From positions 1 to 59,211 of the IMG/VR virus record IMGVR_UViG_3300030102_004787: DNA of 59,211 nucleotides; one strand, written 5' to 3'. The stretch's first letter is position 1, and each line of letters opens with the position of its first letter. Shown here piece by piece: positions 1 through 59,211 of this stretch. The notes beneath the pieces were generated by a model. That model searched no databases, was not told the DNA's origin, and saw only the letters and a program-made list of their open reading frames with translations. Origin of the DNA: a virus. A program made the position numbers and the translations under genes.

Positions 1-98
1 TTGGGAATGAAGCACAAAGGAGCTCACAAACAATCTATGAAAGACAGACGAGACGAGTCAAAGGGAATGGCTAAAAAAATGACAGGACACGCTTATTC
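1..98. repeat. Terminal direct repeat, left copy
   Basis: Bases 1-98 are identical to 59113-59210; the last base of the window (59211, a) differs from base 99 (t). The repeat lies inside a gene whose reading frame continues across the join. The simplest reading is an assembly overlap from a circular or circularly permuted molecule. A true short terminal repeat cannot be excluded from the sequence alone. Confidence 0.9.
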
Positions 99-177
99 TG
101 GAGACCACTCGATGAAGGAGGATAAGCACTACCCTAAAAGTGTAAAAGGACATTTAGGAAAATTAATAAAAAAATGA
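1..177 (+). CDS. Small lysine-rich protein, 3' part (5' part at 59077-59211)
   Basis: The first codon is in frame with the ATG at 59077 when the 98-base terminal repeat is merged, giving a protein of about 70 residues that begins MKQGYNDRLDESLGMKHKGA and ends GHLGKLIKK. It is rich in Lys, His, Asp and Ser and has no membrane segment. The pattern of DESLGMKHKG followed by KMTGHAYSGD is of the kind seen in small proteins of marine phages whose function is unknown. Its stop overlaps the next start (ATGA). It belongs to the array of small basic genes upstream of the tail genes, so a virion or DNA-associated role is possible but unproven. Confidence 0.75.
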   Translation: MGMKHKGAHKQSMKDRRDESKGMAKKMTGHAYSGDHSMKEDKHYPKSVKGHLGKLIKK

Positions 178-333: not shown

Positions 334-492
334 ATGAAACTAAAAGGACTCGGAGATGTTGTAAATTTAGCCACTACTGTTACAGGTGTAAAAGCTGGTG
401 TAAAGGCCGTTTCTGAAATGACGGGAAGACCTTGTGGTTGTGAAGAAAGACGAGATACTTTAAATCGAAAATACCCTTTTCAAAAAAAATAA
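334..492 (+). CDS. Small protein with PCGCEERRDTLN motif, 52 aa
   Basis: It starts with ATG at 334, four bases after the previous stop, and ends at 492, three bases before the next gene. The N-terminal half is a short Val/Gly-rich helix-like segment. The C-terminal half carries Cys-Gly-Cys followed by EERRDTLNRKYPF. Small phage proteins with a CGC(x)RR-LN-(F/Y)P ending are, from memory, common near tail genes of Bacteroidetes phages and have no assigned function. The two cysteines could bind a metal or form a disulfide. Confidence 0.65.
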   Translation: MKLKGLGDVVNLATTVTGVKAGVKAVSEMTGRPCGCEERRDTLNRKYPFQKK

Positions 493-972: not shown

Positions 973-1707
973 ATGTTTACAACGATTGGTGTAGGCATAG
1001 GGACTATATTTAGGTCAGTAAAAGGTGATTCTGGTGGTGGTGCTTTTGAATATACTGCTATTGATAATAGTTTTTCAATGAAGTTCGATGGCAATGATGC
1101 CTTTTATGATACTGGATTTATACCTGAATTAAGTCAAGTAAGTAATTACACTATATCAATGTGGATAAATCCTGATTCAGTTCCATCAACAACTCAAGCT
1201 ATTTTCTCTTTTTACTCAAATTCAAACAATAGAATTGAAATGTATCCTGGAAGTGCTGGAACTATAACGTTTGTTAATAGTAGTGGAGGATTGTCGGCTA
1301 CAGCTGCTGCTTTTCCATCGCCAGCACCATCAAATGGTTGGTATCACGTAGCTTTAGTATATGATGGCACTTTTACAGATCCTGATCCTGTAGTACAAAA
1401 TCAAGGAAGAATAAAACCGTACATAAACGCAGTTTACACTCCGGCTGGTGTTTCAGGTACACAACAACAACAAACAGCTAATTTAACTGGCAAAAGAGCT
1501 ACGATAGGCGCTAGAAGCATTAATTACGGTACTCCAACATTAGACTTTAATGGACACATAGATGAAGTAGCTATATTTAGTAGCTCTCTTTCTTCTAATA
1601 CAATACAATCAATATATGATACTACAATAAATAATCCTGGTAAGGTAGCTGATTTAAGTGAAACACCTGAAGGCGCACCTGCAGCTTGGTATAGAATGGG
1701 AGATTAA
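973..1707 (+). CDS. Single LamG-domain adhesin, 244 aa
   Basis: After a 30-residue N-terminal segment comes one LamG/concanavalin A-like domain (about residues 35-215). Its marks are SMKFDGNDAFYDTG, YTISMWINPD, WYHVALVYDGT, a repeated NxR-PYIN strand and DEVAIFSSSLSSNTIQSIYD. This fold commonly binds glycans. In phages it is frequent in receptor-binding proteins. The ending (AAWYRMGD) is mirrored by the protein at 5900-6814 (QYWNRLGD), and each is followed two to four bases later by a large multi-LamG protein. The two pairs are duplicated cassettes. Confidence 0.85.
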   Translation: MFTTIGVGIGTIFRSVKGDSGGGAFEYTAIDNSFSMKFDGNDAFYDTGFIPELSQVSNYTISMWINPDSVPSTTQAIFSFYSNSNNRIEMYPGSAGTITFVNSSGGLSATAAAFPSPAPSNGWYHVALVYDGTFTDPDPVVQNQGRIKPYINAVYTPAGVSGTQQQQTANLTGKRATIGARSINYGTPTLDFNGHIDEVAIFSSSLSSNTIQSIYDTTINNPGKVADLSETPEGAPAAWYRMGD

Positions 1708-1709
1708 TT

Positions 1710-4700: not shown

Positions 4701-5192
4701 TCTGGAACAAGCAACAGTTCTAGCACGCCAATATCAACTTCAGCAAGTTTTTTCATCGGAAAAGAAACAAATGGAAATAATTTTAATGGTCAAATAAGCA
4801 ACGTATCAATATTCAATGAAGATCTAAGTCAAGATGATGTATTAAATTTATATAACAATGGCGTACCTCAAAACTTAAATAACTTTAGAATAACTCCAAT
4901 AGCTTGGTGGCCAATGGATGAACATAGCTCTTACTATGATGGAACGGATTGGGTTGTGAGGGATCTTATAAATGGAAATGATGGTGACGGTGCTAACACA
5001 GGTAACGTAGATGATCTCGTAGGAAGTGCACCTGGTTCAGAAGCTAGTGGAACTGGAACTAATTTAACTATCGCAGATTTAAAAGGTAATATGAGTAATA
5101 GTGATAAAAACGCATATAGTATTAATATGGCTGATTACGCTGATGGGGTAACTAATCCAGCAAACTCAGGACGTTCTACAAATGTCCCTTAA
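1710..5192 (+). CDS. Multi-LamG tail adhesin, five modules, 1160 aa
   Basis: The start MGTNYIAPIWRMPRNFNKDK resembles that of the paralogue at 6818 (MSTKYIASNWRLPNK). Five LamG modules can be read, opening near residues 26 (YSIEFSGSEYIDLG), 220 (SVFEFDGS), 425 (SFDFDGSNDFIDLG), 635 (AIDFVSSSTQYIDL) and 885 (YSFNFDAAQSDYFDCG). Each has an SxWxK strand, a W-H-V/I core and a final S-x-x-Q/L-x-x-LYNNG turn. A C-terminal segment (AWWPMDE to SRSTNVP) is shared with the paralogue. The likely role is host-surface glycan recognition by the tail. Short nucleotide stretches are nearly identical to parts of 6818-9733. Confidence 0.88.
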   Translation: MGTNYIAPIWRMPRNFNKDKLSNYSIEFSGSEYIDLGTSVDLGINSTISFWFKSSSGNPNNTIIGEDTYTFDYLLQIVSASNEANIRIGSVFKTYTGITEINDGNWNHWIIVRNGDSLELFINNTSKGTKTGYGTGTNTKFNKIGAEGDNQFPISGEISQVSVFNYALDLSQINYLYNLNNPMAISGAEPVAYWPLGDNSNPNAPGSFPNISVGADSVFEFDGSVKIASLANSGFTNNDARTFSAWVKTTDTGNYRTIVQVGPDNNSNQNFELGAFGGFLHFSSWSTYNLTGNVSIADGNWHFVCITFDGSVINGYVDGASAGPNLTNASVSLATTNTPYFIGGSATGNSVKFFNGQISNVQIWNTELSSSEVTTLYNSGVPLTGTQPQASNLKAWYKLDQSANWEADSSGAWQIPDAVSAYPQSFDFDGSNDFIDLGTTTDYNNGDLTAAIWVNASSSRSSTVYAFSNSGSPSIPGFDIKVKTNNQVQVSRVTDTQNTASGWLSIGFVEDSWQHLAFTYNESTNSLKLFLNGVLKDTSTDSPHTPKTSTVKLTIGSYKGISTFWQGQLSNAQIWNTTLSDSQIETLYNNGVPLTTAIASDNLKAWYKLDNTATFSTNWVVENSAITPNFNKAIDFVSSSTQYIDLTNTGFPTGNASRTISAWIKSDSTGQNNEQGILRYGTTATRQLFMMSLAASSGQLRVATYADDFTYSTADLRDDAWHHVALTYDGTSIKGYVDGSYVGVETNTLVNTTANSPAIGNWNGAGFTFNGAISNVLLYTESLTDANILTLYNNGTPQTTPYGSPFGWWKLDNLVTGIQDSGSGGNNGTLVNSPLLISTDVKAGSGISSGMTEQNLVNNNVSVLNGESVGMNTTNLVQSNLTRTQPYSSYSFNFDAAQSDYFDCGNILNTTIAGSFSVSAWMKSSNQNNYAVALSKNNGSNGFSMQMRKVGNKFAFNLNDGSWSAAEFTVSQIDNDEWYHVVGTFDGSTIKIYVNGASGTSNSSSTPISTSASFFIGKETNGNNFNGQISNVSIFNEDLSQDDVLNLYNNGVPQNLNNFRITPIAWWPMDEHSSYYDGTDWVVRDLINGNDGDGANTGNVDDLVGSAPGSEASGTGTNLTIADLKGNMSNSDKNAYSINMADYADGVTNPANSGRSTNVP
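2891..2986 (+). repeat. Nucleotide repeat shared with 8065-8160
   Basis: About 96 bases encoding the linker AWYKLDQSANWEADS and following residues differ at only four positions from 8065-8160, while flanking LamG sequence is much more diverged. This points to recent duplication or recombination between the two adhesin genes. Confidence 0.85.
3491..3566 (+). repeat. Nucleotide repeat shared with 8653-8728
   Basis: 76 bases encoding the linker TAIASDNLKAWYKLDNTATF match 8653-8728 with two differences. It marks the boundary after which module four of the longer adhesin is absent from the shorter one. Confidence 0.85.
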
Positions 5193-5198
5193 TTTTAT

Positions 5199-5206
5199 TA
5201 AATTTG
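5199..5206 (+). promoter_or_regulatory. Candidate Bacteroidetes -7 box (TAAATTTG)
   Basis: TAAATTTG fits the TAnnTTTG consensus for the primary sigma factor of Bacteroidetes and lies 15 bases before the ATG at 5221. No convincing -33 TTTG is seen, so this may be a weak internal promoter. Confidence 0.35.
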
Positions 5207-5220
5207 TAAAAAACTAAATA

Positions 5221-5469
5221 ATGGCAACAACATACATAGTAATAGATATTCAAACGCAGACTTCTTTAGTTGATTTTAGTCAGATCAATACAACAAGTTC
5301 ACAAACTATGAGACGAAATTTAGCTAACTCTCAAAGTATGCTTTCGTATCAAGTAGAACCTAGCTTTATAACCAACGGAACTTTAGTTCCTGTATCGACT
5401 CTTAATCACGAAGAGGCAATTGCGTTATTGGCTACTCCAGAGTGGACATCTCCAGAACCAGAAGAATAA
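5221..5469 (+). CDS. Small conserved tail-region protein, 82 aa
   Basis: It begins MATTYIVIDIQTQTSLVDFS and ends LNHEEAIALLATPEWTSPEP. The pattern of a short hydrophobic N-terminus, a DFSQ-x-x-TSS-x-T-x-R segment and a final HEEA-x-x-LL-x-TPEWT recalls short proteins next to tail fibres in crAss-like and other Bacteroidetes phages. That is memory, not a search. No function is known. It sits 12 bases before the next gene, between the two LamG cassettes. Confidence 0.7.
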   Translation: MATTYIVIDIQTQTSLVDFSQINTTSSQTMRRNLANSQSMLSYQVEPSFITNGTLVPVSTLNHEEAIALLATPEWTSPEPEE

Positions 5470-5481
5470 AAAAATAATACA

Positions 5482-5889
5482 ATGGCAACAATACCAACAG
5501 GAACAAAGTTTCAAGGCATTCCTACAACGAATGATGATCTCAATAGAAGATCTGCGCAATCAAATGCAACTGCTCCAGTATATACTATTTCAGATATCAG
5601 AGCATCGGTTGAGCCTGCTGTTCAAGCTACGGGAACTGAAATTAGCTTTACGAAAACTGAAATTTACAATACTTCATCAGCACCTGCAACAGGAAACATT
5701 ACAAATGATTTAACTGGTGCTCAATTAGGAATAGTTCAAAAGATTTATCACAACGCAGGAACATCTCCTACTGTACCAGCAGGATGGGTTTTAATAGGAA
5801 GTGGAACATATACCACATCAGCTTTAAATCTCATTTTTGCAGAATGGGCAGGTGGAACTAGAGTAGAGTATTGGATAGTATCAACATAA
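5482..5889 (+). CDS. Tail-fibre-like protein with shared N-terminal anchor, 135 aa
   Basis: Residues 1-40 (TIPTGTKFQGIPTTNDDLNR, then R-S-x-Q-x-NATAP-Y) match the start of the 346-residue protein at 55730 almost residue for residue. The rest differs. A conserved N-terminus joined to variable C-termini is typical of fibres that attach to one virion site. The C-terminal half is Thr/Gly-rich and ends in a Trp-containing strand (VEYWIVST). A virion attachment role is inferred. Confidence 0.75.
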   Translation: MATIPTGTKFQGIPTTNDDLNRRSAQSNATAPVYTISDIRASVEPAVQATGTEISFTKTEIYNTSSAPATGNITNDLTGAQLGIVQKIYHNAGTSPTVPAGWVLIGSGTYTTSALNLIFAEWAGGTRVEYWIVST

Positions 5890-5899
5890 TTTTTACGAT

Positions 5900-6814
5900 A
5901 TGTCCAGACACTACCACAGCCTTTTAAATGTTTTAACTTCGGCTGCATTTAGTTATGCTAAGAACTCTTATCATCAAGATGAAGCTGATCCTACTCCTAC
6001 GATCACAGGAACTCCAGGGGGCACATTTTCAGCTACTCCTAGCGGTTTAAGTATTAACACTTCTACAGGTACTATTGATCTTGATAATTCTACTATTCAA
6101 TCTTATACTATTACTTATACCGTTAGTGGTGTTAGTGCTAATTTTAGTTTAAGTGTAACTGCTTCTCCATTTATTGCTAATAACTTTAGTATGGATTTTG
6201 ATTCTGCAAGTTCACAGTATGTTGATTCAGATAAAGCTTTAGCAAGTTTAGGTAATAGTTATACAGGTGAATTAACATTTAGTGCTTGGGTAAAATTTGA
6301 TTCTGCTGGCAATAACGGTATTTTATCAGTAACAAGATTTGCAAACACCACTGGACAGATTGGTTTAGTTGCATTCACTAACAAAGTAAGATTTTTTATA
6401 AATGGTTATACTTGGTACAAGGAAGCAACTAATATAACTACAACAAGTTCTAATTGGTATCATTTGGCTTTTTCTGTGGTTCTTGGAGATGCTACAAATA
6501 CAAAAATATATGTTAACGGTCAAGAGCAAGCATCTGGAACTGGTGTGGGAACGATACCTACTTCTATTAATTTAGACACACACAATGGATTTGACGTTAA
6601 GACTATTATTGGAGGTTACTTTTCGCCAGTTTTTACACATAATGGCAAGATAGACGAGGTAGCCATTTGGAACGCAGCACTATCTTCAGATGCAGTTACA
6701 GAGATTTACAACGCTACAGCAAACAACACAGGCAAGGTATTAGATTTAAACACAGATTCAGGAAATTATACATCCAGTGCAAACTTACAATACTGGAACA
6801 GATTAGGAGATTAA
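5900..6814 (+). CDS. LamG adhesin with N-terminal Ig-like domain, 304 aa
   Basis: The first 25 residues are a weakly hydrophobic leader without a clear signal peptidase site. Residues about 30-90 (GGTFSATPSGLSINTSTGTI and the following ITYTVSG) look like an Ig/cadherin-like putative surface domain. A LamG domain follows (about 95-285): SMDFDSASSQYVDS, LTFSAWVKFD, WYHLAFSVV, KIYVNGQ, GKIDEVAIWNAALSS. The C-terminus QYWNRLGD mirrors the 973-1707 protein. It lies four bases before the second multi-LamG gene and so forms the second copy of the cassette. Confidence 0.82.
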   Translation: MSRHYHSLLNVLTSAAFSYAKNSYHQDEADPTPTITGTPGGTFSATPSGLSINTSTGTIDLDNSTIQSYTITYTVSGVSANFSLSVTASPFIANNFSMDFDSASSQYVDSDKALASLGNSYTGELTFSAWVKFDSAGNNGILSVTRFANTTGQIGLVAFTNKVRFFINGYTWYKEATNITTTSSNWYHLAFSVVLGDATNTKIYVNGQEQASGTGVGTIPTSINLDTHNGFDVKTIIGGYFSPVFTHNGKIDEVAIWNAALSSDAVTEIYNATANNTGKVLDLNTDSGNYTSSANLQYWNRLGD

Positions 6815-6817
6815 ATT

Positions 6818-9733
6818 ATGAGTACAAAATACATAGCATCAAACTGGAGATTACCAAACAAAGCAGGAGTAGATTCTTATTTAAATGATAATTATGGGTT
6901 GTTTTTTGATATTGGTCAGTACATTGACATAGCAGCTTCAACAGTTTTTGATTTTAACACAAATAATTTTTCTGTATCTTGTTGGGTAAAAAAAGGTGCA
7001 AGTTCATCAGGTAATTATCAGCCAATTTTTGATTTTGGAGGTTATTCACAAAGTCCATATAATCAAGGAACAAATATTTATTCTAATAATTCAAACCAAA
7101 TACACATTTATAATAGAGGAAGCAGTCCAAGTAATTGGTTAACAAGTATTACAACTTCAACAGGTTGGAATAATATTGTTGTGGTTAGAAATGGAGATAA
7201 TTTAACTGTTTACATAAATAATTCAACAGAGCAAGTAAATCAAACCTTTACAGGTGTTTCAAGTATTAATTTTGGCGGTACTGCAATTAGTAGAATAGGA
7301 GGGTCTAATTCTTGGCAAGGAGATATTTCAGAAGTATCAGTTTTTGACTATGCTTTAAGTTCTACACAAATAAGCACTTTATATGGTAGCAGTTCATTAG
7401 GTGCTGGGAATCCTATGGCTTTAAAACCTGCTCCTGTCGCATATTATAATCTTGCTGATAATAGTTCAGGAGATCCAATTACACAACCAAATGAAGCGGT
7501 AGAAGATGCAAGTGTTTTTGATTTTGATGGTATTTCACAATTTATAAATGCGGGCAATACTACCTATTTAAATGGAGTTACAGAAATGACATTATCTATA
7601 TGGTTCAATTTAGATGTAGCAGCACAAAATAAAGGTCTTATATCAGATAGACAAAGTACTGGGGGTAATGGACATTTTTCAATAGCTACTAAAGGTATTT
7701 CTGGTAATGGTTATAGTTTTAGGTTATATCTTTCTAGGTCTGATGGGGTAGAAGCATCAATCCAAATATCAAATCAACCTTTTACAGCAGGTCAATGGCA
7801 TAATTTGATAATGACTTTTAATGCAGGAACAGTTATATTTTATGCAGATGGTAGTCTTGCTCCTTCTGCAATTTATAGAGCTAATAATGGTATCCCTTCA
7901 ACTCTAGGTAGTACTGCTGAATCTTTAGATATTGGAAAGTATTTGACACTTGAGTGGGATGGTTTAATTACCAACGTAGCACTATGGAACAGTGACCAAA
8001 CTTCAGAAATATCAAACATATATAATTCAGGAGTACCAGCTACATCATACACAAACACACCAACAGCTTGGTATAAGTTAGACCAATCAGCAAACTGGGA
8101 AGCAGATAGTACAGGAGCTTGGCAAATACCAGATGCAGTTTCAGCATATCCACAAAGTTTTAGTTTTGATGGGAATAATGATTTTGTTGAATTATCATCT
8201 CCTTTAAATTTAACTAATAAAAGTTTTAGTCTTGAAACTTGGATAAAATGGGATGGAGCAGCCTCAAGAAGATCTCTTTTCGGTCATTTAGAAGCGAACG
8301 CTACAAAGAAAAATATTCACTGGAGAATATACCCTAATGGTATGTTAAGGTTTGATTTTTATAACAGCTCTATAGATTCATCTGTTGGAGCTATTGAAGC
8401 AGACACTTGGAATCATTTATCTATTACTTATGATTATGATACAAGTACTTGCATATGTTATAAAAATGGACAAGAATTAATGCAGGGAACAATAGGCCCC
8501 TACATTGGTAGTGTATCTAATAGCAGCACTTTTTTAGGTTGTATGAATAATGGTATTGAAGCTTTTCCTGGAAAAATGTCTTCGTTTAGACAATATGATG
8601 TAGTTCTTTCATCTACACAAGTAGAAACACTATACAACAACGGAACTCCCCTAACAACTGCTATAGCTTCTGATAACTTGAAAGCGTGGTATAAACTTGA
8701 CAACACAGCTACATTCTCAACTAATTGGAGTATTCCAGATGCTTCAGGAAATGGCAACACAGGAACAAGTTCAGGAATGACAGAACAAAATCTTGTTAAT
8801 AATAATGTTTCTGCATTAAATGGTGAGAGTTCAGGAATGACTTCAGCTAATTTAGTTTTAACTGATCTAACGAGAAACCTACCTTTTGATAGTTACAGTT
8901 TTAATTTTGATTCAGCAAGTAGTGATTATATTGATTTGGGCAATAACGCAAATTTATATCCAGCTACAAGTGATATGAGTTATTCATTTTGGTTTAAGTT
9001 TGTTACTGGTTCAAGTTATAGGACTATTTTTGGACAAGGAGCAACAGATATAAATGCTTTAAGCACAGGTAATAAAGCTATTTTTATTACAGTATTTGGT
9101 GATGAATTAAGAGTTTTTGTAGCATTTGGTCAAAGTGGTTCTTGGGCTATTGATAATGGTGGAGCATTTAACACAAGTAATGCTAACTTTGTTAATAATG
9201 AATGGTATCATATAGTTTTTACATTTGACAGAGATGGAGATGGAATAATTTATGTAAATGGTTTTCCTAATGTTACACAAGCAGTTAATGGTTCTTCTAC
9301 AAGTGTAGATATTACTTCAACAGATATAACAACAATAGCAAGTCCAACACTTGGCTATAATTCACAAATAAGCAACGTATCAATATTTGACGAAGCCCTA
9401 ACATCTACAGAGGTTATGAAGCTGTATTCAAATGGTATGCCTCAAGATTTAAGTAGTTTTACACCAGCACCTGTAGCTTGGTGGCCATTAGGTTCAAACA
9501 GCTTTTGGAATGGTAGTCAATGGACGGTTAGAGATATGATTGGCTCAAATGATGGAACAGGTGTTAATCTTGGACAGGATGCACTTGTAGGAGACAGCCC
9601 CAGAAGTGAAGCAAATGGAACAGGCACAAATATGGACATACCTACAAATTTAGAAGGAAGCACAAAATGGAGTGAAAACAATAGCTGGAGTATTAATATG
9701 AGCGAAAGCGCAAGAGTAGCAGATACACCATAA
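6818..9733 (+). CDS. Multi-LamG tail adhesin, four modules, 971 aa
   Basis: It is a paralogue of the 1160-residue protein at 1710. Four LamG modules open near residues 25 (GLFFDIGQYIDIA), 235 (SVFDFDGISQFINAG), 445 (QSFSFDGNNDFVELS) and 705 (YSFNFDSASSDYIDLG). Linkers and the C-terminus (PVAWWPLGSN to ESARVADTP) are shared with the first protein. It lacks the counterpart of module four there. The likely role is glycan or surface-polymer binding. The stop TAATG overlaps the endolysin start by one base. Confidence 0.87.
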   Translation: MSTKYIASNWRLPNKAGVDSYLNDNYGLFFDIGQYIDIAASTVFDFNTNNFSVSCWVKKGASSSGNYQPIFDFGGYSQSPYNQGTNIYSNNSNQIHIYNRGSSPSNWLTSITTSTGWNNIVVVRNGDNLTVYINNSTEQVNQTFTGVSSINFGGTAISRIGGSNSWQGDISEVSVFDYALSSTQISTLYGSSSLGAGNPMALKPAPVAYYNLADNSSGDPITQPNEAVEDASVFDFDGISQFINAGNTTYLNGVTEMTLSIWFNLDVAAQNKGLISDRQSTGGNGHFSIATKGISGNGYSFRLYLSRSDGVEASIQISNQPFTAGQWHNLIMTFNAGTVIFYADGSLAPSAIYRANNGIPSTLGSTAESLDIGKYLTLEWDGLITNVALWNSDQTSEISNIYNSGVPATSYTNTPTAWYKLDQSANWEADSTGAWQIPDAVSAYPQSFSFDGNNDFVELSSPLNLTNKSFSLETWIKWDGAASRRSLFGHLEANATKKNIHWRIYPNGMLRFDFYNSSIDSSVGAIEADTWNHLSITYDYDTSTCICYKNGQELMQGTIGPYIGSVSNSSTFLGCMNNGIEAFPGKMSSFRQYDVVLSSTQVETLYNNGTPLTTAIASDNLKAWYKLDNTATFSTNWSIPDASGNGNTGTSSGMTEQNLVNNNVSALNGESSGMTSANLVLTDLTRNLPFDSYSFNFDSASSDYIDLGNNANLYPATSDMSYSFWFKFVTGSSYRTIFGQGATDINALSTGNKAIFITVFGDELRVFVAFGQSGSWAIDNGGAFNTSNANFVNNEWYHIVFTFDRDGDGIIYVNGFPNVTQAVNGSSTSVDITSTDITTIASPTLGYNSQISNVSIFDEALTSTEVMKLYSNGMPQDLSSFTPAPVAWWPLGSNSFWNGSQWTVRDMIGSNDGTGVNLGQDALVGDSPRSEANGTGTNMDIPTNLEGSTKWSENNSWSINMSESARVADTP
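8065..8160 (+). repeat. Nucleotide repeat shared with 2891-2986
   Basis: Right-hand copy of the near-identical 96-base linker described at 2891-2986. Confidence 0.85.
8653..8728 (+). repeat. Nucleotide repeat shared with 3491-3566
   Basis: Right-hand copy of the 76-base linker, with two mismatches. Confidence 0.85.
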
Positions 9734-52826: not shown

Positions 52827-54431
52827 ATGTCCTACACGCCTAAAGAGTTGGTCTTTGATGAAGAGGCCAAGCAAAAGTTAAAGAGTGGTATTAGTAAGAT
52901 CTGCAACGCAGTCAAGAGCACTCTTGGTCCAGCTGGTAAAACAGTAGTTATTGAATCCCCTAATCACACCCGTGGTATTACAGTTACAAAGGATGGAGTG
53001 ACTGTAGCTAAGTCGGTTTATTTGTTAGATCCGGTAGAAAATCTAGCGGTTCAGATGATTAGAGAGGCTTCTCAAAACACTGCAGATTCGGCTGGAGATG
53101 GTACGACAACAAGCATAGTTTTGGCTGAAGCATTGATAGAACAGGGGTTGGATGAGTTGGAGGAGGCTCCAGATATGAATATTCCTAAGCTTATAAAGCA
53201 GATAGGCGAAGGGAAGGATAAGGTGGTCAGAGAGCTAGAGAAAATGGCTAAGAAGCTAAATAAAAAAAGACTGCTAGACGTGGCTTCTATATCGGCAAAT
53301 AACGATAGGGACATTGGTAAAATTATTGCCGAAGCTTACGATAAGGTGGGAGCTGATGGTGTAGTGACGGTAGAAAACTCTGAGACTTCTGAGACATATG
53401 CAGAGGTGTATGATGGTATCAAGCTAAAGCGTGGGTATACCAACAATGCGTTTATCAATAATCAAAAGAGGGACGAGTGTATACTGGAGAACTGCTATGT
53501 GTTAATTACGGATCACGTTATAAATAATGTGTTACAGATTGAGAATATATTAAAACCAATCATCAATCAAGGCAAGCAACTTTTGATCATAGCGGACTGC
53601 GGTCAGAACGTAGTGAATACGCTGGCGGCAAACGTGGCTAGAAATGGTTTGAAGATCTGTAACATTACACCACCTAAGTTTGGGTATAAGAAGCAGGAGA
53701 TGATGGGTGATATTGCGCTGGCTACTGGTGGGGCTTATATCAGTGAGTCTACTGGGGATGATTTGAATATGATATCGCTTGATCAGCTGGGTATGGCAGA
53801 GAAGGTGATCGTAGGTAGGGAGGACACGGTGATGATCGGTGGTAAGGGAGATAAAGAGGCGATTGAGGAAAGGGTGAAGGAGCTCAAGGTTCAGCACGGT
53901 AATCTAAATGCGAAAGGTGAGCGAGACTTTGTAACGGAGCGTATTGCTAGTTTGAAGGGTGGGATAGGTGTGATCTTTGTCGGTGGGCACTCTGACATTG
54001 AGCAAAAAGAAAAATTTGACCGCATTGAAGATGCGGTGTGTGCTGTTAGCTCAGCACTAGAGGAAGGAGTCCTTCCTGGAGGTGGGGTGAGTTTATATAG
54101 GGCAGCTCACAAATTAATGGACACAGGGTCTAGTTTTGGAGAGATCTTGCTGTATAAGTATTGTATTACAGAGCCTTTCTTTAATATATGTAAAAACGCA
54201 GGTATGGAGGATATGGAGATTGCGGAGATTGAGACCTTGATCCAGAACAGCGAGATCAATATGGGATACGATGTAAAGAACAATATGTGGGGTGATATGT
54301 ACAAGATGGGTATATTAGATCCGCTTAAAGTAACTAAGAACGCACTAGTCAATGCTGTATCAGTGGCTACGACTATATTAAGCACTAACGCTATTATTAC
54401 AATGGCGAGAGAAGTAAGTAAAGGAGAATGA
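52827..54431 (+). CDS. groEL: GroEL-family chaperonin, 534 aa
   Basis: A full-length group I chaperonin. K-D56-GVTVAK, GD91GTTT (90-95), the apical domain with VLITDHVINNVLQIENILKP and GKQLLIIADCGQNVVNTL, FGYKKQEMMGDIALATGGAYIS, and RIED402AVCAVSSALEEGVLPGGG are all present, so the ATPase aspartates (D52, D87 and D398 in E. coli) are conserved. It ends AIITMAREVSKGE and lacks the GGM-rich tail of cellular GroEL. The GC content by eye is higher than in the rest of the genome. Substrates are probably capsid or tail proteins. A GroES-like partner follows at 54724. Confidence 0.93.
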   Translation: MSYTPKELVFDEEAKQKLKSGISKICNAVKSTLGPAGKTVVIESPNHTRGITVTKDGVTVAKSVYLLDPVENLAVQMIREASQNTADSAGDGTTTSIVLAEALIEQGLDELEEAPDMNIPKLIKQIGEGKDKVVRELEKMAKKLNKKRLLDVASISANNDRDIGKIIAEAYDKVGADGVVTVENSETSETYAEVYDGIKLKRGYTNNAFINNQKRDECILENCYVLITDHVINNVLQIENILKPIINQGKQLLIIADCGQNVVNTLAANVARNGLKICNITPPKFGYKKQEMMGDIALATGGAYISESTGDDLNMISLDQLGMAEKVIVGREDTVMIGGKGDKEAIEERVKELKVQHGNLNAKGERDFVTERIASLKGGIGVIFVGGHSDIEQKEKFDRIEDAVCAVSSALEEGVLPGGGVSLYRAAHKLMDTGSSFGEILLYKYCITEPFFNICKNAGMEDMEIAEIETLIQNSEINMGYDVKNNMWGDMYKMGILDPLKVTKNALVNAVSVATTILSTNAIITMAREVSKGE

Positions 54432-54484
54432 TAGATGATATAGAAACAAAAATAAATTAAAATAATAAACTAAACTAAATTAAA

Positions 54485-54724
54485 ATGAGATCATTAGAAA
54501 ATGCCAAAGAACAAATTGAAGACCTTTTATTAAGCGGTGATACCGTAAATGTTATTGATTTAGCTATACAACTACAACGAAATGATGTACTAGCAGATAT
54601 TGAAGAAGTATTGCAAATAATAAGCATAAAAAAGAACGATGTTACTGACAGTATGAGTAGTATTGTAGATAAACTCGATAATATGGCTTTTAATTTATCT
54701 AATATATCAAAGGATATAGTTTAA
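54485..54724 (+). CDS. Small acidic helical protein between groEL and groES, 79 aa
   Basis: MRSLENAKEQIEDLLLSGDT, then VNVIDLAIQLQRNDVLADIE and LDNMAFNLSNISKDIV. It is helical and acidic with no known domain. Its stop overlaps the co-chaperonin start by one base, so the two are coupled. It may be a phage-specific adapter of the chaperonin system, or simply a cotranscribed gene. Confidence 0.7.
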   Translation: MRSLENAKEQIEDLLLSGDTVNVIDLAIQLQRNDVLADIEEVLQIISIKKNDVTDSMSSIVDKLDNMAFNLSNISKDIV

Positions 54725-54981
54725 TGAAACCCGTAAATAAATACATACTGATTGATCCCATTACAGAGGAAGTCAAGACTAACTCTGGGCTTTTATTAAG
54801 CAGTGATGATAAGAATCAATTCAGATACAAGAAAGCAAATGTGGTAGAGACTAGTGACCTAGTGGAAACCATTAAGAAAGGAGATTCGATTTATTACGAC
54901 AAGGCGCAAGCACACGAAGTAATTATCAAAGATGCTTCTTACGTAGTTATTCAAGAGCGTGACGTGGTGGTTGTTTTATAG
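54724..54981 (+). CDS. groES: GroES-like co-chaperonin, 85 aa
   Basis: KPVNKYILIDPI (2-13) is the first strand of the GroES barrel, and the likely mobile loop V-K-TNSG-LLL (17-25) has the hydrophobic tripeptide that docks on GroEL. IKKGDSIYYDKAQAHEVIIK and the final YVVIQERDVVVVL match the GroES roof and last strand (K-x-GD-x-V/I; E-x-D-(I/V)). It is a little shorter than cellular GroES (about 95). It lies in one operon with groEL. Confidence 0.82.
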   Translation: MKPVNKYILIDPITEEVKTNSGLLLSSDDKNQFRYKKANVVETSDLVETIKKGDSIYYDKAQAHEVIIKDASYVVIQERDVVVVL

Positions 54982-55420
54982 ACTTGTTTAGTTCTATAAT
55001 CGCATTTCGATAAACCTTATCCATATACTTCACATCATCCTTAAATAAGGGGTTGACTCTTGGGTCTTCCCCTATTTCTTCGCCATTTAGCTTGGCATAG
55101 ATAGAGCTGACGGCTCTTTTACCCTTAAAAGACAGTTCGTATATATTTCCTTCTCTACCTTTTCCTTCTCTCCATAGTCTAATATATCCACTGTCAATTA
55201 ATTTTTTAAAACGAGTTCTATCCCAAGACATCATCTCGGCATACTGATGAAACGTTTTCTTATCAAAAAAATTCTCGCTGTATAGAAACAGCATCATATC
55301 CAGATCACCCACGCTAAAACCATACTTGGCTTTTGCCCAGTAACGAATGATTCGCCAGTACTTTAAATAATTATGAGAGGGGGTGATTCGTTGTTTAGGT
55401 TTTCGTAAAATCTTTTTCAT
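54947..55420 (-). CDS. Winged-helix DNA-binding protein, 157 aa
   Basis: Helices with KYWRIIRYWAKAKYGFSVGD and LDMMLFLYSENFFDKKTFHQ, then SWDRTRFKKLIDSGYIRLWR and a wing, GKGREGNIYELSFKGKRAVS, recall MarR/PadR-type winged-helix repressors. The protein is basic at the N-terminus. Its 3' end overlaps the co-chaperonin by 35 bases in opposite orientation, and its start is 40 bases from the start of the late-type rightward block. It is well placed to govern that switch. Confidence 0.72.
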   Translation of the reverse strand: MKKILRKPKQRITPSHNYLKYWRIIRYWAKAKYGFSVGDLDMMLFLYSENFFDKKTFHQYAEMMSWDRTRFKKLIDSGYIRLWREGKGREGNIYELSFKGKRAVSSIYAKLNGEEIGEDPRVNPLFKDDVKYMDKVYRNAIIELNKSIKQPPRHALE

Positions 55421-55460: not shown

Positions 55461-55577
55461 ATGGCATACGGAAATGGCGGTGGCAAAAAATCAAAATCAA
55501 AATGTAGAAAGGTGGATGGTAAAATGGTTTGCAATCCAAAACCACCAAAAAAAAGTAAAAAAGGAATATATAAATAA
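55461..55577 (+). CDS. Lysine-rich microprotein, 38 aa
   Basis: MAYGNGGGKKSKSKCRKVDG, then KMVCNPKPPKKSKKGIYK. Two Cys and about 13 Lys. It begins the array of basic genes. It has the look of a DNA-binding or RNA-binding tail protein. No function known. Confidence 0.6.
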   Translation: MAYGNGGGKKSKSKCRKVDGKMVCNPKPPKKSKKGIYK

Positions 55578-55583
55578 ATTACA

Positions 55584-55727
55584 ATGGAAAAATGTGATAA
55601 ATGCGGCAAGCCGCTTTTAAAAGAAACTTTAGAAAAATGCGTTAATACAGTTTGCGAATCAGCTATTAAAGCTATTGGAGAAACCAAACAAAAGCTTAAC
55701 GTAAAAATAAATGATTTAAAAATATAA
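55584..55727 (+). CDS. Zinc-knuckle-like microprotein, 47 aa
   Basis: MEKCDKCGKPLLKETLEKCV has C4-x2-C7 and two later Cys (about 19, 24), a possible zinc ribbon, followed by a helical tail. Two bases precede the ATG of the fibre-like gene at 55730. Confidence 0.6.
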   Translation: MEKCDKCGKPLLKETLEKCVNTVCESAIKAIGETKQKLNVKINDLKI

Positions 55728-55729
55728 TT

Positions 55730-56770
55730 ATGGCTATACCAACAGGAACAAAATTCCAAGGAATACCACCTTCAAATGATGACTTAAATAAAAGGTCTAC
55801 TCAAGTAAATGCAACCGCACCTTTATATGATATATCTGAGTTTGCACAATCAGAATTAACTGTTTCAAACTTAACACTACAAGGAACGACAAATGCTTCT
55901 ACATCTCAGGCGATATATGGAATAAACATTATAGATACAGCTACCCCATCTAATTTAGCTACTAGATTACCTGACGCTAAAACAGGAAAACAAACTACTT
56001 TTGTAAACAACTCAACAATGTCTATATTAGTTTTTCCTTCTGTTGTTGGTGGTAAAATTAATGGAGTAGTTGATGGATATGCGTCAATACCCAACGATGG
56101 AAGACCTTACACTTTTTCTTGCGTAGACAATCCTTTACCTGGGGCTTGGGTTTGGAGTCCACCTGCGGTTGGTCAAATTCAGTTACCTACTATATCAGTA
56201 GCTCACACTAATGGTGTAGGTACTGCAGCTTACGGAGTAGGAACAGCTGGTGCTCAATTAATAAACCCAGCTGGTGCTAATTGGTATGACAATGTATCGG
56301 TTTCAGGGTTTCCAACTTTAACGTTTAACGTTATTTCTGGATCAGCCCCTGGAAGAGACTATTGGGCTACTGTACCAAACCTAACCCCGTTAAGAACCTT
56401 AGTAAACACTAAAGTCTATTCAAATTTTGTGGCAGCAGACACTAGTGTTCCTAGTCAAGTTCCACAGGTTTTAAGAAAAGTTGCTTATAATACAGGAAGT
56501 GGGGCTTATGCTAATTACTCAGCTTCTGGTGTTAGTCTATTTGGTGCTGATACTGTGCCAAGTGGACCTCTGAATTCACCTGTAGAAGTAGGAGATGTAG
56601 GTACTTTTTATAAAATACAACCAGCAAACTTAGTTCAAGTTTCTCCAACAGAAACTGATTTAATAGGATTTGGTCCTACAGGAGATCATTATTTTACTTT
56701 TATTATAAGCTTGCCTCAGTTTTTAGCTACTAAAACTTACAAGTTTGATATATTTTTAGAATATACTTAA
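55730..56770 (+). CDS. Tail-fibre-like protein with shared N-terminus, 346 aa
   Basis: AIPTGTKFQGIPPSNDDLNK and RSTQVNATAPLYDISEF match the N-terminus of the protein at 5482. Residues 60-150 are beta-rich (TFVNNSTMSILVFPSVVGGK) and the C-terminal half is a Gly/Thr/Pro-rich beta region ending in TYKFDIFLEYT. The shared first 40 residues probably fix both proteins to the same virion site. Confidence 0.78.
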   Translation: MAIPTGTKFQGIPPSNDDLNKRSTQVNATAPLYDISEFAQSELTVSNLTLQGTTNASTSQAIYGINIIDTATPSNLATRLPDAKTGKQTTFVNNSTMSILVFPSVVGGKINGVVDGYASIPNDGRPYTFSCVDNPLPGAWVWSPPAVGQIQLPTISVAHTNGVGTAAYGVGTAGAQLINPAGANWYDNVSVSGFPTLTFNVISGSAPGRDYWATVPNLTPLRTLVNTKVYSNFVAADTSVPSQVPQVLRKVAYNTGSGAYANYSASGVSLFGADTVPSGPLNSPVEVGDVGTFYKIQPANLVQVSPTETDLIGFGPTGDHYFTFIISLPQFLATKTYKFDIFLEYT

Positions 56771-56771
56771 A

Positions 56772-57041
56772 ATGAAGACTTCAGAGTATTATAAAAATAA
56801 TCCAGATGCATATGAAAAGAAAAAAGCATATGACAAAAAGTATAATGCTACTAGGAAAGCTACTAAAAAAAGAACTAAATTAAACAAGTTTAACAGACAG
56901 AAAGGCACATACGGAAATGGAGACGGATTAGATGCTTGTGAAAAGAAATTCAACAGCAAGGTAAAAATTCGTTTTTGTAAAATGAGAAACAATAGAGGAG
57001 ATAAGGACGATATGCCTGGAGATAAAAGATCGAGAGGTTAA
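56772..57041 (+). CDS. Lysine-rich protein with GNGDGLDA motif, 89 aa
   Basis: MKTSEYYKNNPDAYEKKKAY, then KATKKRTKLNKFNRQKGTYG and NGDGLDACEKKF. The K/R-rich helix plus GTYGNGDGLDA is a pattern I have seen in short proteins of cyanophage, marine phage and large DNA viruses. pI is very high. DNA contact in the particle is likely but unproven. Confidence 0.7.
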   Translation: MKTSEYYKNNPDAYEKKKAYDKKYNATRKATKKRTKLNKFNRQKGTYGNGDGLDACEKKFNSKVKIRFCKMRNNRGDKDDMPGDKRSRG

Positions 57042-57042
57042 T

Positions 57043-57189
57043 ATGGCTATAAAAAAGAAAAATAAGATTTGCCCTAAAGGAAAAGCTTGGGCAATGAGAA
57101 CATACGGTAAATGGTCTGCTTACGCTGCTATGGGGGCAAGTAAATACTGTAAAGATCCTAATTACGCTAAAAAATCAAAAAGAAAATAA
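57043..57189 (+). CDS. Lysine-rich microprotein, 48 aa
   Basis: MAIKKKNKICPKGKAWAMRT, then YGKWSAYAAMGASKYCKDPN. It belongs to a group of short phage proteins with CPKGKA-x-x-(K/R)-x-YxxxSAYA-x-x-x-x-x-x-C. Unknown function. Confidence 0.68.
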   Translation: MAIKKKNKICPKGKAWAMRTYGKWSAYAAMGASKYCKDPNYAKKSKRK

Positions 57190-57190
57190 T

Positions 57191-57373
57191 ATGAAAGGTG
57201 TACCACATTTTAAAAAAGATGGCACTATATATAAGGGTGCAACACATAAATCAGGAAAAAAACTAATGTCAGGTAAAAATCACACAAAAAAAAGTGTTGA
57301 TTTATTTCACATTAATGAATTACCTAAAAGATCATTAATGAAAGCTTATAAACAAGCAGGGTTATTAAAGTAA
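57191..57373 (+). CDS. Lysine-rich protein, 60 aa
   Basis: MKGVPHFKKDGTIYKGATHK, then KSVDLFHINELPKRSLMKAY. Basic; the KKDG-x-x-x-KG-x-x-HK start and LPKRSLMKAY end are seen in short marine-phage proteins. The stop overlaps the next start by one base. Confidence 0.68.
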   Translation: MKGVPHFKKDGTIYKGATHKSGKKLMSGKNHTKKSVDLFHINELPKRSLMKAYKQAGLLK

Positions 57374-57663
57374 TGGCAAAAAAAAGAGACCCTAAAAAAG
57401 GAACTGGCAAAAAACCCAAGGGATCGGGAAGACGTTTGTATACAGATGAAAACCCGAAGGACACAGTTCGTATAAAATTTGCTACTCCTAGTGACGCAAG
57501 GGCTACGGTGGCAAAAGTTAAAAAAATTAGAAAACCTTTTGCAAGGAAAATACAAATACTAACCGTAGGTGAGCAAAGGGCAAAAGTAATGGGAAAGACA
57601 GCGGTAGTTAATATTTTTAAAAAAGGAAAAGAATCAATTAGAAAAGAAAATAAGAAAAAATGA
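57373..57663 (+). CDS. Lysine-rich protein, 96 aa
   Basis: MAKKRDPKKGTGKKPKGSGR, then RLYTDENPKDTVRIKFATPS and QILTVGEQRAKVMGKTAVVN. The first 25 residues are a flexible basic tail, and the rest a small alpha/beta domain. KGSGRRLYTDENPKDTV is a strong motif in marine phage proteins of unknown function. Confidence 0.72.
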   Translation: MAKKRDPKKGTGKKPKGSGRRLYTDENPKDTVRIKFATPSDARATVAKVKKIRKPFARKIQILTVGEQRAKVMGKTAVVNIFKKGKESIRKENKKK

Positions 57664-57788
57664 GCAAGTTAAGCGCAAAACAAAGAAAGATTGCTAGAGC
57701 TGCAATGCCTTTCGATAAAATCACAGGAGCTGATTTTAAAGTATTAAAAATGATAAAAAAGAAAAAAAATGCCAACAGTAAAATATAA
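57660..57788 (+). CDS. Lysine-rich microprotein, 42 aa
   Basis: MSKLSAKQRKIARAAMPFDK, then ITGADFKVLKMIKKKK. The L-SAKQR-KIA-AA-P-DKITGADF motif is frequent in short proteins from cyanophages and other marine viruses. Overlaps both neighbours. No role is known. Confidence 0.65.
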   Translation: MSKLSAKQRKIARAAMPFDKITGADFKVLKMIKKKKNANSKI

Positions 57789-57930
57789 GTGTGGAGACAC
57801 AGGAAAGATGAAAACAAAAAAATTCCCTTACAACGCAATGGGAAAAGCACAAGCCGTTGAGTTTGCAAAAACAATGAGAGGACAAATAAAAATGAATCCT
57901 GGAAAGGGTAAAACAGAAATGGGATATTAA
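57769..57930 (+). CDS. Lysine-rich microprotein, 53 aa
   Basis: MPTVKYKCGDTGKMKTKKFP, then YNAMGKAQAVEFAKTMRGQI. KKFPY-(K/N)xx-GKxxAxxFAK is the repeated core of such proteins. It overlaps the previous gene by 20 bases in another frame, and the next by one. Confidence 0.62.
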   Translation: MPTVKYKCGDTGKMKTKKFPYNAMGKAQAVEFAKTMRGQIKMNPGKGKTEMGY

Positions 57931-58166
57931 TGGGTGCGTTAAAAAAATGGCGAGATGAGAAATGGGTTCGTATTGGAACCGATGGTCGGATTAAAGGGCC
58001 TTGTGGAACCAGTAAAAAGAAAAAGAACCCAGATCGCTGTTTGCCATTATCAAAAGCAAGGAGCCTTAGCAAGAAAGAAAGAGCTGCTACAGCGAGAAAG
58101 AAAAAAGCATCTGGCGGTAAGAAGCAATTTGTACCAAACACAAAAGCAGCAAAAGTTAGAAAATGA
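57930..58166 (+). CDS. Basic protein of DUF6321 type, 78 aa
   Basis: MGALKKWRDEKWVRIGTDGR, then IKGPCGTSKKKKNPDRCLPL, SLSKKERAATARKKKASGGK. The WVRI-x-x-x-G-x-I-GPCGTS and NPDRCLP core is, from memory, highly conserved in marine phages (DUF6321). Two cysteines are likely metal ligands or a disulfide. Its function is unknown. Confidence 0.75.
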   Translation: MGALKKWRDEKWVRIGTDGRIKGPCGTSKKKKNPDRCLPLSKARSLSKKERAATARKKKASGGKKQFVPNTKAAKVRK

Positions 58167-58567
58167 AAGTATCTGAATCTACAGAGTTTAAAATAGATAT
58201 TAAGACCGTAATAGCCATAATAATGATAACGTCTTCTTTTGTGGGTATGTATTATACGTTACAAGAAGATATTGCAGAAGCCAAAACTTTACCTCCTACA
58301 GAGGTAAAAAGGCTAGAATATGACCTAAAAGAGCAGTGGAATAAAGAAAATATAGAAGATCTTCAAGAAAGAGTAGAGATGTTAGAGCAGGTAGATGATG
58401 TTTTGTTTGAAGAATTAAAAGTATTGTCCATATTAATTCAAGAAGGATCAGAAAGTGATGGTAAACTAGAAGAGCTTAATAGACAGTTGGAAGAATTAAA
58501 AAACAAAAAAAATAAACCAACTATAATCGTGAAGGAAATAGAAGTCGATAAGAAAAAAAGAAGGTAA
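58163..58567 (+). CDS. Membrane-anchored coiled coil, 134 aa
   Basis: One membrane segment at 15-33 (TVIAIIMITSSFVGMYYTL) is followed by a long coiled coil (ERVEMLEQVDDVLFEELKVL, EELNRQLEELKNKKNK) and a basic tail. The shape is that of an inner-membrane spanin (Rz-like), but a partner outer-membrane lipoprotein is not seen, and a virion role is also possible. Confidence 0.65.
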   Translation: MKVSESTEFKIDIKTVIAIIMITSSFVGMYYTLQEDIAEAKTLPPTEVKRLEYDLKEQWNKENIEDLQERVEMLEQVDDVLFEELKVLSILIQEGSESDGKLEELNRQLEELKNKKNKPTIIVKEIEVDKKKRR

Positions 58568-58860
58568 TGTCTACGAGTAAAAAAAATATGAAGTGCAATG
58601 TAGTACGTGCTAGCACAAGACCAGGTAAGAAAAAGATGGTAAAAGCGTGTCAAGGTGGTAAAGAAAAGCTAATTCACTTTGGTGCTAAAGGTTATGGGCA
58701 TAACTACAGTGCTGCTGCTAGAAAAAGTTTTAGAGCTAGACATAAGTGTAACACGGCTACATCGAAGTTGACAGCTCGGTATTGGGCGTGTAAACACTTG
58801 TGGGCTGGCAAAGGAGGATCTACTAAGAGCTCTCCTAAATCAAGAAGGGGTAAATATTAA
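58567..58860 (+). CDS. Basic protein with FRARHKC motif, 97 aa
   Basis: MSTSKKNMKCNVVRASTRPG, then EKLIHFGAKGYGHNYSAAAR, KSFRARHKCNTATSKLTARY and WACKHLW. It belongs by eye to a family of small proteins present in phages and in large eukaryotic DNA viruses that carry F(R/K)ARHKC and KLTARYW(A/S)C. Cysteines and histidines could bind zinc. The stop is followed by a promoter-like box (58865). Confidence 0.72.
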   Translation: MSTSKKNMKCNVVRASTRPGKKKMVKACQGGKEKLIHFGAKGYGHNYSAAARKSFRARHKCNTATSKLTARYWACKHLWAGKGGSTKSSPKSRRGKY

Positions 58861-58864
58861 TTTG

Positions 58865-58872
58865 TATATTTG
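58865..58872 (+). promoter_or_regulatory. Candidate -7 box TATATTTG
   Basis: TATATTTG four bases after the previous stop and 15 before the ATG at 58888. It would start a transcript crossing the join into the tail genes. Confidence 0.45.
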
Positions 58873-58887
58873 TAAAAATAAATCACT

Positions 58888-59073
58888 ATGAAAAATTATA
58901 TGTACGGCCTAGGTATGATTGATGGTCGAGAAGTTAATTTGAGACCACAGCCAGAGATGGGGATTTCTAAATTAGCTAGAATGAAAAAAGAAATGAAAAG
59001 GTACGATAAAGTACAGATGATGGCAGAGGCTCAAGAAATGGCTAATGCTAATATTAACTTATTTAAAAAATAA
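58888..59073 (+). CDS. Small protein, 61 aa
   Basis: MKNYMYGLGMIDGREVNLRP, then QPEMGISKLARMKKEMKRYD. Helical, basic, ending NANINLFKK. Unknown family. It follows its own -7 box and precedes the gene across the join by three bases. Confidence 0.65.
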   Translation: MKNYMYGLGMIDGREVNLRPQPEMGISKLARMKKEMKRYDKVQMMAEAQEMANANINLFKK

Positions 59074-59076
59074 AAA

Positions 59077-59211
59077 ATGAAACAAGGTTACAACGACAGA
59101 CTAGATGAGTCTTTGGGAATGAAGCACAAAGGAGCTCACAAACAATCTATGAAAGACAGACGAGACGAGTCAAAGGGAATGGCTAAAAAAATGACAGGAC
59201 ACGCTTATTCA
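59077..59211 (+). CDS. Small lysine-rich protein, 5' part (continues at 1-177)
   Basis: ATG 59077 opens MKQGYNDRLDESLGMKHKGA. The window ends in the middle of the gene; merging the 98-base repeat places 59113 on base 1 in the same frame, so the reading frame runs to the stop at 175-177. The full protein is about 70 residues. Confidence 0.75.
   Translation, partial: MKQGYNDRLDESLGMKHKGAHKQSMKDRRDESKGMAKKMTGHAYS
59113..59210. repeat. Terminal direct repeat, right copy
   Basis: Identical to 1-98; see there. Confidence 0.9.

What the first reader, a model, noticed from the sequence alone, without database searches (positions are those of the whole stretch)
55461..59211. Array of at least ten very short, lysine-rich genes, continuing across the join
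Between 55461 and base 492 there are about 15 genes of 37-134 codons, most with high Lys/Arg and a few Cys/His, coupled by one- to twenty-base overlaps. Several carry motifs (GTYGNGDGLDA, DKITGADF, GPCGTS-NPDRCLP, FRARHKC-KLTARYW) that, from memory, recur in cyanophages and even large DNA viruses of algae. They lie at the head of the structural block. A shared role, for example charge balance of packaged DNA or a protamine-like core, would be new. That role is inference.
Basis: partly seen in the sequence, partly recalled or inferred. Interest (0 to 1): 0.72.

Follow-up and report, generated by a model that had tools for sequence, protein, structure and literature searches.

The report
Array of likely internal capsid proteins
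A marine phage carries a tight row of about 15 tiny, mostly very basic genes; in other phages relatives of several of them are fused to head-assembly proteins or built into polyproteins marked with head-protease cut sites, which suggests that they are small proteins packed inside the virus head next to the DNA.

Summary
Fifteen short same-strand genes (38-134 aa) fill 55461-59211 and 1-492, interrupted by one 346-aa gene; one gene crosses the contig join. Thirteen of the 15 have K+R of 20% or more, and the 13 with homologs show purifying selection (dN/dS 0.03-0.20 where computable). Seven families form a conserved ordered module in dozens of other virus contigs. S11 belongs by homology to the Tlr6F/DUF5754 superfamily, known from phages, polinton-like viruses and giant viruses but without assigned function. 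In protease-encoding phages the same modules occur (a) fused to the head maturation protease, in both orders (ICP1 gp125; Aeromonas PhAER-3); (b) inside a portal-MuF polyprotein detected by MS in CL131 virions; (c) behind a ~33-aa acidic leader ending in a T4-gp21-type site (I/L/V)xE|A; (d) in polyproteins with 3-fold enrichment of such sites. The window phage has no detectable prohead protease and encodes them free-standing, without a leader. Best explanation: internal (core) head proteins, working like T4 IPI-III. No virion proteomics exists for this phage group, and one cyanophage virion proteome did not list the polyproteins.

The parts
55461..55577 (+). S01, 38 aa, K-rich, 2 Cys; no relatives found
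55584..55727 (+). S02, 47 aa, 4 Cys; only in two close relatives
55730..56770 (+). 346-aa non-basic protein interrupting the row; N-terminus shared with 5482-5889 (probably tail-related; inference)
56772..57041 (+). S03, 89 aa, GTYGNGDGLDA family (phrog_6437); embedded in T4-like polyproteins with protease-like sites
57043..57189 (+). S04, 48 aa (phrog_27331); related segment in S-SM2 SSM2_109 and L238 polyproteins
57191..57373 (+). S05, 60 aa, basic; no relatives found
57373..57663 (+). S06, 96 aa, basic; 79% identical relative in HTVC033P; related segment is the N-terminal part of the S-SM2 708-aa polyprotein
57660..57788 (+). S07, 42 aa, DKITGADF family; free-standing also in HTVC106P beside S04 and S11 relatives
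57769..57930 (+). S08, 53 aa, basic
57930..58166 (+). S09, 78 aa, GPCGTS..PDRCLP family (phrog_23735); embedded in S-SM2, L238, L393 and L373 polyproteins
58163..58567 (+). S10, 134 aa, acidic, transmembrane segment plus coiled coil; probably not part of the basic set
58567..58860 (+). S11, 97 aa, Tlr6F/DUF5754 superfamily (phrog_7595)
58888..59073 (+). S12, 61 aa, basic; usually upstream of the module in relatives
59077..59211 (+). S13 first part (70 aa in all, crosses the join), basic
1..177 (+). S13 second part; bases 1-99 repeat the contig end
174..329 (+). S14, 51 aa, hydrophobic; probably not part of the basic set
334..492 (+). S15, 52 aa, basic, CGC motif; conserved in order with S13 and 496-972

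Best explanation
The row encodes a set of internal (core) head proteins: small basic proteins taken into the prohead and kept beside the DNA, working like the T4 internal proteins IPI-III. In phages that have a prohead protease the same modules are delivered as leader-bearing proteins, protease fusions or polyproteins and would be cut into small basic proteins in the prohead. This phage and its podovirus-like relatives have no detectable prohead protease and encode the modules directly in final form as separate coupled late genes. Shown here: gene reality, conservation and order of the module, the fusions, the protease-like sites, and the protease/leader correlation in nine genomes. Published: MS detection of the CL131 Tlr6F-containing portal polyprotein in virions. 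Inferred: that the window proteins enter the head, that the sites are cut, and that they bind DNA. Best supported for S03, S04, S06, S09 and S11; by neighbourhood only for S07, S08, S12, S13 and S15.
For: Fusions: ICP1 gp125 = Peptidase_S78_2 (res 37-160, 39 bits) followed by Tlr6F, lying between portal and scaffold genes; Aeromonas PhAER-3 = Tlr6F followed by S78_2; CL131 gp012 = Portal_3, Tlr6F, InPase, MuF, and this ORF012 was among the LC-MS/MS-identified virion proteins (PMC6293099). Polyproteins: S-SM2 SSM2_109, between TerS and TerL, carries S06-, S09- and S04-like modules plus DUF192 and DUF6321; L238 carries S03, S09, S04 and Tlr6F in three consecutive long ORFs; L393 carries S09, Tlr6F and an S04-like stretch. 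Sites: T4 gp21 cuts after L/I-X-E (PMC9026906). In 17 non-redundant polyproteins [LIV]xE[AGS] occurs 69 times against 22.9 expected (maximum of 300 shuffles 36); 49 control proteins of the same contigs 74 against 60.6; reversed and Asp motifs not enriched. 45 of 58 embedded Tlr6F modules have [LIV]xE within 12 aa upstream (random mean 13.9, max 24; shuffled max 30); S03 10 of 17 (random mean 2.4, max 8). Leader: median 33 aa, net charge -6, in 77 T4-like proteins against 4 aa in 145 podovirus-like ones. Protease: S77 in S-SM2 and HTVC008M, S78_2 in ICP1 and PhAER-3, none of S77/S78/S78_2 in the window, elemoF, CRP-738, HTVC106P or P12053L. Context: relatives lie in late structural/lysis blocks. 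Order: S04 before S09 130/130, S09 before S11 111/120, S13 before S15 101/101.
Against: No virion proteomics for this phage or elemo phages was found. In S-SZBM1 the polyprotein _194 and the DUF6321 protein _192 are absent from the 30 MS-detected virion proteins, although small Lys-rich peptides are easily missed by tryptic MS. CL131 MS shows the polyprotein, not that the Tlr6F segment stays in the virion. Sites near S04 and S09 modules are not significantly enriched. Some Tlr6F fusions (L381, L389, L396, L408) lack the site at the boundary. Five short families have no fusion evidence. Protease absence rests on three Pfam models only.
Confidence: 0.56

Rival explanations
1. Virion proteins, but not in the DNA cavity: minor capsid, neck, portal-vertex or decoration proteins that clamp the shell.
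For: Fusion to portal-MuF in CL131; gene neighbours include terminase, portal and tail genes.
Against: Leader plus cut-site architecture and protease fusion are typical of core-delivered proteins; strong positive charge suits a DNA contact.
Confidence: 0.16
2. Late-expressed host-takeover or nucleoid/ribosome-binding small proteins that act in the cell and are never packaged.
For: Small basic proteins with Cys pairs are common in that role (general knowledge); S-SZBM1 _191/_192/_194 were not seen in virions; some neighbours are membrane or lysis-type genes.
Against: Conservation with late genes, fusion to head protease and portal, and protease-site enrichment have no obvious reason under this view.
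Confidence: 0.15
3. Transient head-assembly factors (scaffold partners or protease regulators) lost before maturation.
For: Tlr6F fused to the protease in two orders.
Against: The same modules persist in phages that have no detectable protease.
Confidence: 0.11
4. Chance short ORFs of an AT-rich genome.
For: The AT-rich code favours Lys; S01 and S05 have no relatives.
Against: dN/dS 0.03-0.20; families recur in tens to hundreds of loci with conserved order.
Confidence: 0.02

Closest known systems
T4 internal proteins IPI-III and the gp21-processed prohead core (PMC9026906, PMC9958956)
   Same: Small basic proteins; in T4-like marine relatives a short acidic leader and an (I/L)xE|A site precede the basic part
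   Different: Window genes have no leader, no detectable prohead protease in the genome, form a long gene row; sequence relation to T4 IPs was not tested
Tlr6F / DUF5754 (PF19058) family of phages, polinton-like viruses, virophages and giant viruses (PMC4642659)
   Same: S11 is homologous: its elemoF ortholog scores 44 bits over the 27.4 cut-off, and its model matches Tunisvirus V9SE36
   Different: S11 itself scores 20.6 bits, below the cut-off; the literature gives no function
Cyanophage T4-GC119 polyprotein (S-SM2 SSM2_109, Syn9 gp114)
   Same: Carries S06-, S09- and S04-like modules (S-SM2)
   Different: One 708-aa gene with added DUF192 and DUF6321 modules; the window has separate genes
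ICP1 gp125 capsid protease
   Same: Contains the S11-type module
   Different: Fused to an XkdF-like S78_2 protease that the window phage lacks

Membership tests
Tlr6F / DUF5754 (PF19058) | Pfam profile above curated cut-off | tested here: not met
   S11 20.6 bits against 27.4; ortholog elemoF gp42 44 bits
Tlr6F / DUF5754 (PF19058) | Homology to accepted members by sequence and predicted fold | tested here: met
   49% identity and E 6e-13 to elemoF gp42; Foldseek to Tunisvirus V9SE36 probability 1.00, E 6e-3
PHROG families 6437, 27331, 23735, 7595 | Profile match | tested here: met
   E 8e-20, 6e-13, 4e-26, 1e-12 for S03, S04, S09, S11
T4 internal head proteins | Small basic proteins | tested here: met
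   pI about 10-11, K+R about 0.2-0.35 for most
T4 internal head proteins | N-terminal targeting leader with L/I-X-E site | tested here: not met
   Absent in the window (leader about 4 aa) but present in T4-like relatives
T4 internal head proteins | Prohead protease in the genome | tested here: not met
   No PF03420, PF04586 or PF14550 in the window
T4 internal head proteins | Presence in purified virions | not testable with these tools
   Only published MS for the CL131 Tlr6F-containing polyprotein
T4 internal head proteins | Sequence homology to IPI-III | not tested
   No direct comparison was made
DUF6321 (PF19846) | Pfam profile match in the window | tested here: not met
   No match in the ten short proteins scanned; present in C75C1, 023Pt, HTVC033P and S-SM2
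Histone or protamine-like families in Pfam | Pfam profile match | tested here: not met

The most novel reading that the evidence does not exclude
A shared, horizontally exchanged kit of capsid-interior basic modules exists across tailed phages and, through Tlr6F, polinton-like and giant viruses of eukaryotes: encoded as gene rows where there is no maturation protease, and as protease-cut polyproteins where there is one. Tlr6F, a widespread viral protein of unknown function, would be a virion core protein.
Probability: 0.3. Interest if true: 0.85.

Novelty: new variant of a known kind. Interest (0 to 1): 0.68.

Why it matters
It gives a testable function to several abundant orphan families of marine viruses, including Tlr6F/DUF5754, which is shared by phages and eukaryotic DNA viruses, and to DUF6321 and DUF3008 through shared polyproteins. 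It suggests that internal head proteins, best known from T4, may be common in ocean phages, including podoviruses that have no prohead protease.

Tried and rejected
Direct DNA match to known phages: none. Solved structures by sequence: no relatives for S11, S09, the ICP1 protease tail or the modules (DUF192 only). Foldseek against PDB for the S11 and S09 models: nothing significant; S11 model moderate (pLDDT 73), S09 81. S-SZBM1_190 and _195, virion proteins encoded between TerS and TerL, looked promising but carry none of the modules. First iterative HMM run with all filters off timed out and was repeated with filters on. Pattern search in the own genome was uninformative. S-SM1 Table S8 (virion MS of a T4-GC119 bearer) is in a supplement that could not be read. 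A literature search for DUF6321 found nothing.

Full report
Observation. The window is a circular virus contig: 99-base terminal direct repeat with one mismatch, 59112 unique bases. Junctions overlap by 1, 4, 20, 1, 4, 1 and 4 bases or leave gaps of 1-27 bases. Thirteen have K+R of at least 0.20; S10 (acidic, membrane plus coiled coil) and S14 (hydrophobic) do not fit. The basic bias is significant against the rest of the genome (p about 1e-6) and against its other short ORFs (p 2e-5), and dN/dS is 0.03-0.20 wherever it could be computed.

The virus. TerL 13029, portal 15275, a virion structural protein at 18857 and an endolysin at 9733 match PHROGs; a GroEL-like and a GroES-like gene lie just upstream of the row. 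Nearest annotated relatives are Flavobacterium phages 'elemo' (60 kb), Podoviridae ctfjg026 and phage 023Pt_psg01.

Co-occurrence. In IMG/VR contigs S03, S04, S07, S08, S09, S11, S12, S13, S15 and the following gene at 496 recur. Of 53 S09 loci with flanks, 100% have S04, 81% S11 and 86% S15 within 4 kb; order is strongly kept (S04 before S09 130/130, S13 before S15 101/101, S15 before the 496 gene 118/118). S03 is the exception: most relatives are in other viruses. S01 and S05 are orphans; S02, S06 and S14 are rare in these loci.

Identity of S11. It belongs to the Tlr6F/DUF5754 superfamily: S11 is below the Pfam cut-off (20.6 against 27.4 bits), but its elemoF ortholog is well above it (44 bits). 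Tlr6F is described as conserved in nearly all polinton-like viruses, several virophages, many giant viruses and some phages, with no known function (PMC4642659). The S11 AlphaFold2 model (pLDDT 73) matches ICP1 ORF125, an XkdF protein, a 1393-aa phage protein and a Tunisvirus protein in the viral library, and nothing significant in the PDB.

Fusions. Tlr6F is C-terminal to the S78_2 capsid protease in ICP1 gp125, between portal and scaffold genes, and N-terminal to it in Aeromonas PhAER-3. It lies between portal and MuF domains in Aphanizomenon phage CL131 ORF012; that portal protein was among 23 virion proteins identified by LC-MS/MS (PMC6293099). S-SM2 SSM2_109 (708 aa, between TerS and TerL, with matches to parts of it in about 500 phage records, mostly T4-like cyanophages) contains S06-, S09- and S04-like modules and DUF6321. 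Contig L238 has S03, S09, S04 and Tlr6F spread over three consecutive long ORFs. L393 has S09, Tlr6F and an S04-like stretch in one protein.

Cut sites. T4 gp21 cuts after L/I-X-E, and the T4 internal proteins are small basic core proteins with short N-terminal leaders (PMC9026906; PMC9958956). In 80 T4-like loci Tlr6F mostly follows an acidic leader ending in (I/L/V)xE|(A/S)E-YQG; 33 of 46 distinct boundary peptides fit, with the middle residue variable. HTVC008M's own protease and core protein carry similar sites. Polyproteins are enriched for such sites, 69 against 22.9 expected, where controls, reversed and Asp versions are not. Sites sit just before Tlr6F (45 of 58) and S03 modules (10 of 17) far above random placement, but not before S04 or S09 modules, for which few cases exist. 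Leader length is 33 aa in T4-like and 4 aa in podovirus-like forms, and the phages with free-standing genes have no detectable prohead protease, with positive controls found. The random-placement and shuffle tests use related sequences, so the counts are not independent events.

Mechanism. The simplest reading is that these are internal head proteins, delivered directly where there is no protease and through cleavable carriers where there is one. Head location of the window proteins, cleavage and DNA contact are inferred. One set of the 15 proteins carries net charge +164; with T4-like copy numbers (about 360 each, PMC9026906) this would be roughly 59000 positive charges against about 118000 phosphates. 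That is arithmetic on an assumed copy number, not evidence.

Against. S-SZBM1 virion MS lists 30 proteins without the polyprotein _194 or the DUF6321 protein _192, although it does list _139, which carries another module type seen in these polyproteins. No MS was found for the window's own group. I therefore put the interior-head explanation at 0.56, rivals at 0.11-0.16.

Noticed in passing
L414:11253-13376 (-), Synechococcus phage S-SZBM1_194: Polyprotein between terminase genes with DUF3008-like and protease-site-like segments and a C-terminal S-AdoMet lyase domain (Pfam 33 bits): a possible packaged anti-restriction enzyme, analogous to T4 IPI.
   Followed up: partly
L415:989-2362 (-), S-SZBM1_139: MS-detected virion protein (PMC9146016) with a CWKGY..GTK..PDCKK module also found in the polyproteins and a long Ala/Lys-rich histone-H1-like C-terminus.
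   Followed up: partly
window 55730-56770 and 5482-5889: Two proteins share an N-terminus (GTKFQGIP..NDDLN..S.Q.NATAP.Y), probably a common virion-attachment domain with different C-terminal parts.
   Followed up: no
window 973-9733: Several large proteins with repeated LamG/concanavalin-like motifs, probably host-binding; recognised by eye, not tested.
   Followed up: no
window 52827-54981: Phage-encoded GroEL-like (534 aa) and GroES-like (85 aa) proteins separated by a 79-aa ORF; the opposite-strand 157-aa ORF at 54947-55420 overlaps the GroES end and its apparent ctfjg026 counterpart is annotated as a repressor.
   Followed up: no
L256:2465-6646, Aphanizomenon phage CL131 gp012: One 1393-aa protein joins portal, Tlr6F, inorganic-pyrophosphatase-like and MuF domains.
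   Followed up: partly
L341-L410: Tlr6F-bearing phage-like contigs binned in MAGs of many phyla, including Lokiarchaeota and Planctomycetes; these may be binning artefacts.
   Followed up: no
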